This document shows, piece after piece, positions 1,506 to 63,640 of a stretch of DNA of 64,000 nt. Below the pieces are notes generated by a model. It did not search any database. It had not been told where the DNA came from and worked only from the letters and a program-made list of their open reading frames with translations. The DNA comes from Thysanoteuthis rhombus (taxonomy: Eukaryota > Mollusca > Cephalopoda > Oegopsida > Thysanoteuthidae): assembly GCA_963457665.1 (NCBI GenBank), contig OY735215.1:44455016-44519015 (forward strand). Direction: 5' to 3'. Position numbers and translations under genes: made by a program. Within the stretch, counting starts at the first letter, position 1, and each line of letters starts with the position of its first letter.

Positions 1506-3078
1506 CGATTGCACTTATCTCTATGGTCTATCTGCAAACTTTTATGTGTATGGATTCGTTTTCTCAGCTTGAGAATAGGCTACAATAAACATAATTATTG
1601 TCTCTAATTATCTCCGAGTACACATCCTAGAATCTACTGCCACTCATTCAGTGACGAATTTTTTTTTTGTTCTTCTTTCTTTGCCGTCATCCGGGTACTT
1701 GCCGACCTATCACGTGAAAACAGTCGACATTTTTTTTTCTTTTCTTTCTTTTTGACATTCGACTTCGTCTCTGTTGTTTTTTTGCTGTGCACACTAATCA
1801 CCGCTGGGCCGTTTTCAATTGACTCAACTCGACCCAATTCGCGACAATTATGTGCAAATTGCTCCACCAGTGGCTCGCTTTAAAAATAAAATATCCCATG
1901 TGTGCTTTCCGACAGAGTCTGTATGAGAGAATTTGCCACACTTTCTGGGTTAATCACTGAAGACGATAAGTTAACTGTAGAACATGGCCGGCTGAAAGTG
2001 CCGGTACCATGGGCAGCTGCCCAGGGAGCGAAGTTTTTGGGGCGCCTGTCATGTGTTTGATTTTATAAAACTTTCCAAATACAAATCCAAAATAGGAATA
2101 TGAATAAATTGAACAGGATAAAAACATTCAAAATAAGAAAATCCCCCGGTGTTGGGACAGATTTATCAAGAATAACTGGCTGTTGAATACTGGTTGTCAG
2201 AACCGTTTGTTTTTTTTTTGTTTTCTTTTGTTTTGTTTTTTTCGCCTGATTATGGTAATAAACCTTTTTATTCTTTTATATTTATTTTTCTCGGTGTAAA
2301 GTAAAATTCTATGCTTATGATAACCAGTTAATCATGAAAATAGAAATATTTTTTTTTTTCTTCAGTGGTCGTAGATGTTTATTTTTTAAATTATTCATAA
2401 AATTCTAAAGAACTAAAAATTACAAAAAACCTTGAAAACTCCAAATTCTCACAAATGTACGTTCGTCCTGTATATTATTTTCATTGATGTATGCTTTCAA
2501 TGTACAAGTTATGGCTGTTTAGGCTATTTATTATTGTTAACAATGTGTATAAGTACTCTGTCACACAAAAGGATGTAAATGACGTAATAAGATTGCACTT
2601 TATGTTCTGACGTCATAATAAAAGTATTATAAAATATATGCATATATAGTCCTTTGCTAGCTGTTTGTACAGTAGTTCAAAACGTCACTGTTTGTAAAAG
2701 TCTGCAGCAAACGTTCAAATTCCCCCGATCTTTTGGATAGCATCTTATTATATATATATATATATATATATATTATTAATTTCAAAGTTCAATATATGTG
2801 ATTAATGGAGAAGCATTGGGTTGTGTAGAAGGAGATTATGTTGATAAATGAATATTTGTTGTGTGAATCAAATGCTTGTTTCATCATTAGACTACGGACT
2901 GTGTGTGCATGTGTGTGTGTGTGTGTGTTTATGATTGATAATACCTATATACATGTGTGTGTGTGAGAGTGTGTATGTGTGTGTGTGTGTGTCTACGCGT
3001 ACATACATTGATTGTACTTAAAAACCATACGTAAACTATGTACGAACCTCAGAATTTGGACCAATACTTTGTCTTGAT

Positions 3079-24197: not shown

Positions 24198-25280
24198 GTA
24201 TCATCATCATCATCATCATCAGTCTTTTAACGTCTGTTGTTGAATATAGACCCTCCCAAGGATTCACCACACTTCTTTATCGTGGACATTGCAGAGCCAG
24301 TATTTTCTAAATTTGTCCTGTCCATCTCTCCATGTTGTATTCTGTCGGCCTTGGTTTCGCATGCAATCTCTGGGGATCCATGTTGTGAGTCTTGATGTCC
24401 ATCAGTTGTCTATCATTCTTGCAACATGGCCTGCCCATTGCCACTCAAGTGTTCTAATAGATTCTATGATGTCTGACTCCTGTTCTCTTCCTTATATACT
24501 GTGCTCTTGTGATCTCTCCATGTGAGTTTGAGTATGATTCTCTCATGTGCGCGTTGCATGCCTCTCATTTTGTGAGTCTGTTTCTTGCTTAGGTGCCATA
24601 TTTCAGCTCCATAAGTGACTATTGGGAGGATGCATTGATTGTATACTCTTCTTTTTAGGATCTTTGGGATCGACTTGTTTTTGAAGGTTGAGATTGCTCT
24701 ACCACAGATTTACCATCCTAGGATGATTTTTTGCTTGATCTCTTCCTCTTTCGAAGATTTCATAGATATTCGTTGTCCTAGGTAGATGTTGTGGTCAACT
24801 TTCCCCAATTTTGCATCTCTGATTTTGACAGATATGTCCTTATTCTCAATGTGATCGTTGCACATGATTTTTGTTTTACTCAAAGTCATATGTAGGCCAA
24901 CTCTTTTGCTTTCTTCATTTACTTCATCTAGCATTAGTTGGAGGTCATGCAGGTTCTGTGCGAAAAGGACGATGTCATCTGCAAATCTGAGGTTGCTAAG
25001 ATACTCACCGTCTATTATGATTCCTCTATTCTCCCAATCCAGGTTTCGGCAGATCATCCCGAGGCAGGCTGTGAAGAGTTTGGGTGAGCTGGTATCACCT
25101 TGTCTTACTCCTTTTTGGAGTTGGAAGGGTTCAGAGTCCTTATGTAGCCTGAGAAAAGAGTTGCTGTGATTATATTTATGTTTTAGTACTTTGACGTATA
25201 CAGGGTCAACACCTAATAGAGTGATGGCCTTCATAACCATGGGGATTTTTACAGAGTCAAACTTGTTTTCAAATTGCTTC
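24198..25280 (-). mobile_element. RTE-like LINE, longest copy
   Basis: Its 3' tail is (CAT)n on the plus strand at 24201-24222, so the element reads on the minus strand. It runs from RT motif A (FDSVKIP near 25255) through the palm and the C-terminal QCILPIVTYGAEIW block (about 24625-24590) to the tail, about 1.08 kb. The endonuclease and the N-terminal RT are missing. 5' truncation is the usual outcome of target-primed reverse transcription. Confidence 0.85.
24710..25240 (-). pseudogene. LINE reverse transcriptase palm fragment
   Basis: A 176-codon open frame. Residues 43-56 are KGVRQGDTSSPKLF (RT motif B) and 86-89 are FADD (motif C, the catalytic Asp pair), followed by the motif D/E region. 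Motif A (FDSV) lies just upstream of the first Met in the same frame, so that Met is not the true start. The product would be the RNA-templated DNA polymerase of the retrotransposon. This copy lacks the endonuclease and the fingers domain, so it cannot be autonomous. An in-frame stop ends it before the C-terminal block. It is the best-preserved transposon coding segment in the window. Confidence 0.85.
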
Positions 25281-25440
25281 CTTTGTATGTGTGTGTGTAA
25301 ACATGTATGTATGTAAGCAAAGTAATGTTTATGTCTGCAAATATTTGATGTACATATATATCAGATGTTAAATATTTGCATAAGTTTTTGACACGTTCAC
25401 ACACGTTTCTACATGTGAAAGAGAAAGTCTCTCACTATAC

Positions 25441-62345: not shown

Positions 62346-62435
62346 GAGACTCAAAGTGGGAAGGAGGAGGTAAGAAACGGTTGGAAAGGGGCGGGGAAGG
62401 GGAGAAAAGAAAGTGGAAATATTAATATTATTTTC

Positions 62436-62620
62436 ATTATTATTATTATTATTAGAAGTAGTAGTAGTAGTAGTAGTAGTAAACTGTTGTTATAATAATC
62501 ATAATAGTAGTAGTAATCAGGGAAATTCGGAAGAAGTAGTAGTAATAGTTGTCATTGTAATAAAACTGTAGTTTAGTAGTAGTAGTTATTTTAATTGAAG
62601 ACGTATTGAACTGTAGTAGT
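62436..62620. repeat. (ATT)n and (GTA)n microsatellites
   Basis: ATT run to about 62453 followed by imperfect (TAG)n/(TAA)n for 160 bp. Confidence 0.85.
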
Positions 62621-62791
62621 ATTAGTAATTAGCAATGGAAACTGCTGAAGTAGTGATAGTAGTAGCAATGGAAGAAGAACAAAAAAGGTTGGTAGATAAA
62701 AGATGAAAAAGAGGAGAAATGTATGTTATGTATTCAGTTGAAAAGACAATGCGGAAAACAAACTCGTCGAAAGTAATGAAATCTGTTTATT

Positions 62792-62832
62792 TCATTGACA
62801 TGTTTCGTCGGGGACTGACTTCTTCAGAATGA
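62792..62832 (-). ncRNA. hammerhead ribozyme-like motif, left arm
   Basis: Minus strand: TCATT (stem I), CTGAAGA (intact core), one extra A, GTC-AGTCCCC-GAC (stem II, three pairs), GAAA (intact), C-AT-G with AC/GT as stem III, TC (cleavage expected at 62797), and AATGA (stem I, five pairs with TCATT). The core is complete. The unpaired A between core and stem II departs from the textbook form but recurs at 15.1 and 38.0 kb. Confidence 0.55.
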
Positions 62833-63326
62833 GAAAAACAATGTCGCAAAATCACAAACGTTGACAATATATTAGCAGAGATCGGCAGTTAAATTGTTAT
62901 CAGTTCTTTTGTAGATGTCACCAAACTTAATTATCCAAAACAGTTTTATGGGCGTCCAAGAGTCTAGGTTTGTAATCTGATCTCAGCTTTTTTTGTCTCG
63001 AAAGAGTCATGTGTCTACTAATCTGTTTGTCTTATTGTTGACAAAAGGTGAGTTGGCATCATTAGCCGGTCCATTTTGGATACCAATAAAACCAATAAGT
63101 CAACTTATTAAAACTCCCAAACTGGCAACATAGCTTGAACTCTTTCTACGTATGAATTCCATGAAGGACACACACGCACATACTTTCCGTCAAAAAATTA
63201 GATTACCAGCCCAGACTGTCGGACACCCATGAAACCATTTTGGATAATTAAATTTGACGACATTTACAAAGAACTGATAATACCTTAACAGCTGATAGCT
63301 GCCTTTATATCGTCCATTTTTTTTTA

Positions 63327-63372
63327 TATTTCGAAGAAGTCACCCCCACACCCCACAAAACATGTCAATGGA
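63327..63372 (+). ncRNA. degenerate hammerhead-like motif, right arm
   Basis: Plus strand: TTCGAAGAAGTC, a C-rich loop, then CACAAAACATGTCAATGG, aligned with the left-arm motif. CTGAAGA has lost a base and GACGAAA has become CACAAAA, so this copy should be inactive. Confidence 0.45.
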
Positions 63373-63430
63373 ATATAGAGGTTTTATTTCTAACAGCAAA
63401 TCCGCTTTCTGCATTGTCTTTTCAACTCCA

Positions 63431-63531
63431 CAATGTCGGATAAATTAATCGAAACACTGATCTTATATTTATATATGTGCACAAACACACACGCACACTC
63501 ACACACACATGTATATATATATATATATATG

Positions 63532-63581
<50 letters not shown>

Positions 63582-63640
63582 ATATATATATATGTATATA
63601 TATATATAGTGGGTGTGCATGTGCGCGAGTGTGCTCGCTT
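63431..63640. repeat. (TA)n compound microsatellite
   Basis: CA then TATA/TATG runs, mainly 63508-63610, then TG-rich sequence. Confidence 0.9.

What the first reader, a model, noticed from the sequence alone, without database searches (positions are those of the whole stretch)
62734..63430. 700-bp inverted-repeat element whose arms carry hammerhead-like cores
Arms of about 230 bp match in inverse orientation. The left arm has an intact CTGAAGA...GAAA...GTC core with a five-pair stem I, and the right arm has a decayed version at the mirror position. No ORF lies inside. This fits a non-autonomous Penelope-like element with inverted LTRs, or a foldback that has captured ribozymes.
Basis: partly seen in the sequence, partly recalled or inferred. 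Interest (0 to 1): 0.75.

Follow-up and report, generated by a model that had tools for sequence, protein, structure and literature searches.

The report
Paired short Penelope-type jumping element
The inverted repeat is two copies of an old, gene-less jumping element, inserted back to back, whose ends look like those of Penelope retrotransposons in the same genome; it is a fossil of a poorly understood way of copying DNA.

Summary
Two arms (69.7% identical over 251 columns) face each other at 62731-63462, with a hammerhead-like core in each: left intact, right decayed. The host genome is held, so the element could be traced. Each arm is one 5'-truncated copy of an old, ORF-less repeat of about 570 bp. 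Of 52 loci read, 19 are head-to-head pairs like this one, with differing junctions.

Copies come with or without a 36-nt tail at the 3' end. In the 8 pairs where both ends could be scored, 7 have exactly one tail. Head-to-head inverted pseudo-LTRs and an optional 30-40 bp tail are published hallmarks of Penelope-like elements (PLEs). The last ~150 nt also align with a consensus of PLE 3' ends from the same genome (0 of 2000 shuffles); the 5' ~380 nt do not match the PLE. I read it as a SINE-like, non-autonomous PLE mobilised in trans, inserted as a pair by priming on both strands of a break.

Ribozyme activity is unproven: one extra A in the core, no Rfam hit in the window, weak covariation. 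The autonomous master was not found.

The parts
62731..63053 (-). Left arm: 5'-truncated copy of the repeat (family consensus about 229 to 542), short (tail-less) 3' end facing left
   Evidence: nhmmer E 2.7e-81; tail test z -0.6; outer end placed by eye at the decayed CCATA site
63051..63462 (+). Right arm: 5'-truncated copy (consensus about 93 to 575) with the tail, 3' end facing right into AT/CA repeats
   Evidence: nhmmer E 1.3e-87; tail test z 8.6
62797..62827 (-). Hammerhead-like core, intact: CTGAAGA, extra A, stem II of 3 pairs before a mismatch, GAAA, GTC; five-pair stem I outside it
   Evidence: pattern scan; alignment A1; no Rfam hit
63331..63366 (+). Hammerhead-like core, decayed: TCGA for CUGA, AAAA for GAAA
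   Evidence: alignment A1; read directly
63433..63462 (+). Optional tail between the two alternative 3' ends (right arm only; placed by eye)
   Evidence: consensus tail 36 nt (cons2 540-575)
63041..63062 (.). Head-to-head junction: the arms meet at different consensus positions (about 229 and 93-102), so it is not a palindrome
63463..63610 (.). AT/CA microsatellite abutting the tailed end; not part of the element
   Evidence: sequence

Best explanation
62731-63462 is one old insertion event of a short non-autonomous retroelement mobilised by a Penelope-like element (PLE). The master was an ORF-less transcript of about 570 nt: a private 5' part of roughly 400 nt and a PLE-type 3' end of roughly 150 nt carrying a hammerhead-like motif, then two alternative reverse-transcription start sites 36 nt apart. 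A PLE RT/GIY-YIG protein acting in trans cut both strands of an AT-rich site and extended both. One strand was copied from the inner start site (left arm, no tail), the other from the outer (right arm, tail). Each cDNA stopped at its own 5' point and the two were joined head to head. Shown here: the family, pairs, differing junctions, two end classes, and homology of the 3' end to GIY-YIG PLEs. Inferred: trans-mobilisation, two-strand priming, one event, and any ribozyme activity.
For: 52 loci compared: 39 places, all 12 new places, and the window. Neighbouring copies within 400 bp: 20 head-to-head, 2 tail-to-tail, 2 direct; I drop L021 as doubtful, leaving 19. Of the 12 loci found with a single-unit query, 4 are head-to-head (L051, L053, L056, L059). 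In one search's 47 matches all 7 pairs within 500 bp are head-to-head, 4 of them outside the 52 loci. Without L021, arm heads differ by more than 25 nt in 15 of 19 pairs. Two 3' ends: of 57 scorable ends 26 have the tail (z>=4; one, L017, borderline), 29 lack it (z<=2), 2 lie between. Pairs with both ends scorable: 7 of 8 have exactly one tail, 1 none, 0 both (about p 0.03); by match ends, 5's 7 pairs have one, 1 none, 1 unclear (3 of these loci are also among the 52). GIY-YIG proteins: 2247 first-look candidates, 150 scored, all listed at E<3e-9; Pfam GIY-YIG in L063. Unit 420-576 against the PLE-end consensus of 10 copies: 87.2 against a shuffled maximum of 71.9, 0 of 2000 (blocks of two bases shuffled). 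L010 also holds a head-to-head pair of PLE ends, only one of them tailed. Published: a PLE protein cuts and extends both strands and starts at two adjacent sites that explain the 30-40 bp tail (PMC11167929, parts 1-2 of 4 read); head-to-head pLTRs, one with a 31-bp tail (PMC3846280, passages).
Against: No autonomous element with the same 3' end was found. The PLE family sampled has a degenerate core (CTGGAAAAG in the consensus) and no homology to unit 41-420 (126.8 against a mean of 123 and maximum of 144 in 200 shuffles). Single PLE copies match weakly or not at all: only L065 of 7 beats every shuffle; an earlier, shorter comparison gave 0, 1, 20 and 35 of 300 shuffles as good for L064, L063, L062, L061, not all at the expected place; a 50-nt PLE end against the unit gave 3 of 1000. 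The unit's profile finds nothing in L060 (best E 1) or L061-L064 (best E 0.11, in AT repeat), and the PLE-end profile finds one unit copy at the right place at E 0.037. The hammerhead model does not find the PLE ends. Divergence of the two arms is only weakly correlated across pairs (Spearman 0.38, p 0.14; permutation of the mean difference p 0.28; 16 of 19 pairs), so one event is not proven. 4 of 19 pairs have near-symmetric heads, and L040 is a true palindrome, so some pairs may be self-primed. Two tail-to-tail neighbours exist (L040, L046). No target-site duplication was shown.
Confidence: 0.78

Rival explanations
1. Pairs arise by self-priming: the cDNA (or antisense template) snaps back and copies itself, giving a palindromic head-to-head junction, as proposed for rotifer Penelope elements.
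For: L040 is a real palindrome centred on the hammerhead's 5' edge; 12 of 48 truncated copies start at consensus 430-450, where TTCTTCA/TGAAGAA can fold back (jitter null P 0.0002). PMC3846280 (passages) argues for self-priming on an antisense template.
Against: 15 of 19 pairs, the window's included, have heads more than 25 nt apart (L021 left out); self-priming predicts equal heads. It does not by itself give one tailed and one tail-less end.
Confidence: 0.17
2. Chance nesting: copies of a dispersed repeat landed next to each other.
For: 33 of 52 loci have no head-to-head partner (L021 counted as none); arm ages correlate only weakly.
Against: 20 head-to-head against 2 tail-to-tail and 2 direct (head-to-head against tail-to-tail, one-sided p 6e-5; about 1e-4 without L021, my arithmetic); 7 of 7 in another list.
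Confidence: 0.04
3. Foldback or MITE-like DNA transposon with hammerhead-bearing terminal inverted repeats.
For: The window copy looks like one.
Against: Junctions and arm lengths differ from copy to copy, single arms are common, two alternative outer ends.
Confidence: 0.02
4. Animal retrozyme (hammerhead circRNA retroelement).
For: Size, AT-rich, hammerhead-like motif, no ORF; retrozymes are themselves thought to use PLE proteins (PMC7229834 sections 13-14 read; PMC7761336 passages).
Against: Retrozymes lie as tandem repeats of a hammerhead unit; none of 52 loci shows tandem full units. The passages read do not describe the PLE tail in retrozymes.
Confidence: 0.1

Closest known systems
Penelope-like elements with GIY-YIG endonuclease (Penelope/Poseidon group; Pen2a_Av in PMC3846280, the anole Poseidon of PMC11167929)
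   Same: Head-to-head inverted pLTRs, optional 30-40 bp tail on one of them, hammerhead-like motif upstream of the end, AT-rich target, homologous 3' end in this genome
   Different: No RT/EN ORF; a private 5' part without homology to the PLE sampled; the mobile unit is one arm
Non-LTR retrozymes of animals (PMC7229834)
   Same: Short, ORF-less, AT-rich, type I-like hammerhead motif, thought to borrow PLE machinery
   Different: Not in tandem here; head-to-head pairs and tail instead; no evidence of circRNA
Short nonautonomous Penelope elements of Heliconius (mentioned in PMC6685494, passage only)
   Same: Called nonautonomous and Penelope-derived
   Different: No structure given in the passage seen, so not comparable in detail
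SINEs (general knowledge)
   Same: Private 5' part joined to the 3' end of an autonomous retroelement
   Different: No B box with fewer than 3 mismatches in the consensus; the partner is a PLE rather than a LINE

Membership tests
Penelope-like element (autonomous) | RT plus GIY-YIG ORF | tested here: not met
   Longest stop-to-stop run in the insert 61 aa
Penelope-like element (non-autonomous derivative) | Head-to-head inverted pLTR organisation | tested here: met
   19 of 52 loci; 7 of 7 adjacent pairs's list
Penelope-like element (non-autonomous derivative) | Optional 30-40 bp tail, on one arm | tested here: met
   26 tailed, 29 tail-less, 2 between, of 57 ends; 7 of 8 scorable pairs have exactly one
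Penelope-like element (non-autonomous derivative) | 3' end shared with GIY-YIG PLEs of the same genome | tested here: met
   Consensus to consensus 0 of 2000 shuffles; single copies weak or negative
Penelope-like element (non-autonomous derivative) | Target-site duplication | tested here: inconclusive
   Flanks printed for 13 copies and the window and read by eye: none clear; microsatellite, decayed
Hammerhead ribozyme | CUGANGA ... GAAA ... UH core with stems I and II | tested here: inconclusive
   Consensus has it with one extra A; intact by regex in 8 of 60 copies; window not hit in Rfam; L055 hits Hammerhead_3 at 20.2 bits, E 3.2, below the cut-off of 48.5
Hammerhead ribozyme | Compensatory changes in stems | tested here: inconclusive
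   63 of 500 shuffles reach the covariation score, 25 of 500 the percentage paired; slid versions score lower; pair 20-32 G-C/C-G Fisher p 0.026, chosen after looking
Hammerhead ribozyme | Self-cleavage | not testable with these tools
   needs RNA
Animal retrozyme | Tandem repeats of the hammerhead unit | tested here: not met
   Only 2 direct neighbours within 400 bp in 52 loci, both read as pieces of one broken copy (L018, L032)
SINE | Pol III promoter | tested here: not met
   No A or B box with fewer than 3 mismatches in the consensus
Foldback/MITE DNA transposon | Fixed terminal inverted repeats around a common interior | tested here: not met
   Variable junctions, single arms

The most novel reading that the evidence does not exclude
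A SINE-type parasite of Penelope elements whose insertions record two-strand priming: each new copy is made from two RNA templates, one started at the inner and one at the outer RT site, joined head to head, with the hammerhead's 5' edge acting as a preferred point where the copy ends or turns back.
Probability: 0.35. Interest if true: 0.65.

Novelty: new variant of a known kind. Interest (0 to 1): 0.45.

Why it matters
How Penelope elements insert, and why their copies sit head to head with a tail on one side, is unsettled: self-priming was proposed from rotifer copies (PMC3846280), and a purified lizard PLE protein was later found to cut and extend both strands from two start sites (PMC11167929). 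A multi-copy gene-less family that repeats the same anatomy gives many independent junctions on which the two models can be told apart. It also extends the SINE principle (borrowing the 3' end of an autonomous element) to PLEs, and places a hammerhead-like motif inside the borrowed part.

Tried and rejected
Foldback/MITE reading: rejected on variable junctions. tRNA-type SINE: no tRNA in the window, no A or B box with fewer than 3 mismatches. Rfam on the whole window at gathering (0 hits) and on 62400-63600 at E<=10 (16 hits, none a hammerhead; the best lie in the AT/CA repeat). Arm ages as proof of one event: inconclusive. GIY-YIG family search with Pfam gave 7 matches, all over the cut-off (E 6e-6 to 8e-4); a protein fragment from one of them rang far better. 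Pattern for an intact core: 2 exact matches in the genome, 0 for the reversed control, as expected of an old decayed family. Comparing the lists by eye, not by script, I saw no EN hit beside a unit match; all these lists are capped. A genome search with the PLE-end consensus did not complete. RNA-model search of the window and L060-L067 (9 matches) found the two window arms, which are in the model by construction, and seven others that I take for chance (best E 0.003). Hammerheads in cephalopod repeat papers: PMC13282606 and PMC8967140 have 0 occurrences in the main text; the giant squid paper lists 235 hammerhead 1 matches. That the host is a cephalopod is only an impression; it was not tested. 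Paper searches. I saw no description of this family in their listings or in the parts I opened, but Repbase/Dfam could not be searched. Two key papers (PMC4209133, PMC5785218) are not held; what I say of PLE hammerheads beyond the papers opened is recalled.

Full report
What is in the window. The reported inverted repeat is real and far above chance. Both arms belong to one repeat family; they differ from the family consensus by 15.4% and 16.1%. Two copies diverged independently to that degree should be about 70% alike (my arithmetic), which is what is seen (69.7%).

The family. The window lies in a held assembly of 2.73 Gb in 514 contigs. Searching it with the element gave 90 matches (40 of 110 first-look candidates scored); with a first consensus, 53 matches (40 of 289 scored). 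Counts are lower bounds. I fetched 39 places and all 12 new places; with the window that makes 52 loci. Most of the 39 places match the left arm on one strand and the right arm on the other, because both arms are the same unit. The unit is about 570 bp. It has a repeated start near TAACTTGACACC with AC-rich sequence before it, an internal duplication of about 90 bp at 80% identity (positions 120-208 and 323-412 of cons2), the hammerhead-like core at 441-473 and ends at 539 or 575. Median distance from consensus is K2P 0.27 over 68 units, so the family is old.

Pairs. Among the 52 loci, neighbours within 400 bp are head-to-head 20 times, tail-to-tail twice and direct twice. One head-to-head case (L021) rests on a weak 95-bp match (E 4e-4) and I leave it out, giving 19. 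The first query held both arms, which could favour paired loci; among the 12 loci found with a single unit 4 are head-to-head, and in a third search with the 3' end alone all 7 adjacent pairs are. Junctions differ: without L021 the two heads are more than 25 nt apart in consensus position in 15 of 19 and closer in 4. With L021 it is 15 and 5 of 20, where random pairing of arms gives 2.5 close ones and at least 5 with P 0.08. In 14 pairs looked at more closely the heads meet directly, overlap in the two alignments, or leave 8 to 49 nt of filler.

Two ends and the tail. Many tail-less copies stop after (A/T)CCATA; the others go on for 36 nt to CTGATC and then usually AT repeat. Of 57 ends that could be scored, 26 carry the tail, 29 do not, 2 are between. 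In 8 of the 19 pairs both ends could be scored: 7 have exactly one tail, 1 none, 0 two; the chance of at least 7 of 8 is about 0.03, which is suggestive only. In the 7 pairs the match ends suggest one tail in 5, none in 1, unclear in 1 (3 of these loci overlap the first set).

The link to Penelope elements. In a purified lizard PLE the protein cuts and extends both DNA strands and starts reverse transcription at two adjacent internal sites that coincide with the 30-40 bp tail of genomic copies; its hammerhead cut lies 26 bp into the ORF and the main start site 111-118 bp in; mutating the hammerhead did not change insertion in vitro (PMC11167929, parts 1 and 2 of 4). Rotifer Penelopes carry head-to-head inverted pLTRs with a 31-bp tail optionally on one of them (PMC3846280, passages). 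Here the core's cleavage site is 66 nt before the inner and 102 nt before the outer end, a similar layout. The genome holds many GIY-YIG relatives: 2247 first-look candidates for an 85-aa query, 150 scored, all significant; one fetched frame matches Pfam GIY-YIG above its cut-off. Seven fetched stretches at or downstream of such frames (L061-L067) resemble each other; five of them (L061, L063-L066) gave a PLE-end profile that found five more copies (E<1e-8) in the flanks of four of the unit loci, among them a head-to-head pair in L010 of which one end is tailed and the other not. The consensus of those ten ends aligns with unit 420-576 from the hammerhead position through the tail (87.2; 2000 shuffles of two-base blocks at most 71.9). 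Individually the copies are too decayed to show it well: 0, 8, 8, 52, 160, 263 and 342 of 500 shuffles as good, for L065, L063, L064, L061, L062, L066, L067, and the unit's profile does not find them. Unit 41-420 is not similar to the PLE endonuclease and 3' region. So the unit has a private 5' part and a PLE-type 3' end, as SINEs have a LINE-type 3' end.

The hammerhead. The consensus holds CTGAAGA, stem II (GUCGG/CCGAC in some copies, GUUGC/GCGAC in others), GAAA and GUC, with stem I outside, but with one extra A between CTGAAGA and stem II. Intact cores by a regex: 8 of 60. Core columns are no better kept (mean 0.87) than 23 downstream columns (0.86), so there is no sign of selection on individual copies. 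Covariation is weak (63 of 500 shuffles reach the score; Fisher 0.026 for one pair chosen after looking). Rfam sees no hammerhead at the window; in a scan of 12 other loci (41 matches up to E 10) the only hammerhead match is L055:495-545(-), overlapping the expected place, at E 3.2 and below cut-off. Minimum-energy folds of the window arms and of two consensus versions are not the hammerhead fold. I take it as a PLE-type hammerhead in the master, activity unknown.

An unexpected cluster. Of 48 truncated copies that reach the 3' region, 12 begin at consensus 430-450, at the 5' edge of the hammerhead; moving each start at random by up to 60 nt rarely gives such a peak (P 0.0002). Hammerhead cleavage would give 474, so it is not that. 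Snap-back at TTCTTCA/TGAAGAA, a short subfamily, or an RT stop are open. A minimum length for detection may add to it.

Mechanism. The best fit is target-primed copying by a PLE protein on both strands of an AT-rich site, one primer at each start site, with independent 5' truncation and end joining. Self-priming may explain the near-symmetric minority (L040). That both arms arrived at once is inferred; the age test did not settle it.

Known or new. The parts are known from PLEs; the combination (gene-less, private 5' part, PLE 3' end with hammerhead, head-to-head insertion) was not described in what I saw of the papers found, but repeat libraries were not available. I call it a new variant of a known kind. 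The host was not identified.

Noticed in passing
family consensus (cons2) 430-450; loci L010, L028, L031, L035, L038, L040, L044, L045, L051: 5' ends of truncated copies cluster at the 5' edge of the hammerhead (12 of 48, P 0.0002 by jitter); not the cleavage site.
   Followed up: partly
L010:2222-2296 (-) and 2501-2632 (+): A head-to-head pair of PLE 3' ends, one tailed and one tail-less, in the flank of the unit pair of the same locus.
   Followed up: partly
window 24710-25360 (-): Reverse transcriptase fragment (Pfam RVT_1, E 5e-16; 10 of the 41 longest frames were scanned).
   Followed up: no
family consensus 120-208 and 323-412: The unit contains an internal duplication of about 90 bp at 80% identity.
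   Followed up: no
window 62430-62670: GTA/ATT trinucleotide-rich stretch directly left of the insert.
   Followed up: no
genome of the window: GIY-YIG PLE fragments appear very numerous (2247 first-look candidates for one 85-aa query, 150 scored).
   Followed up: partly
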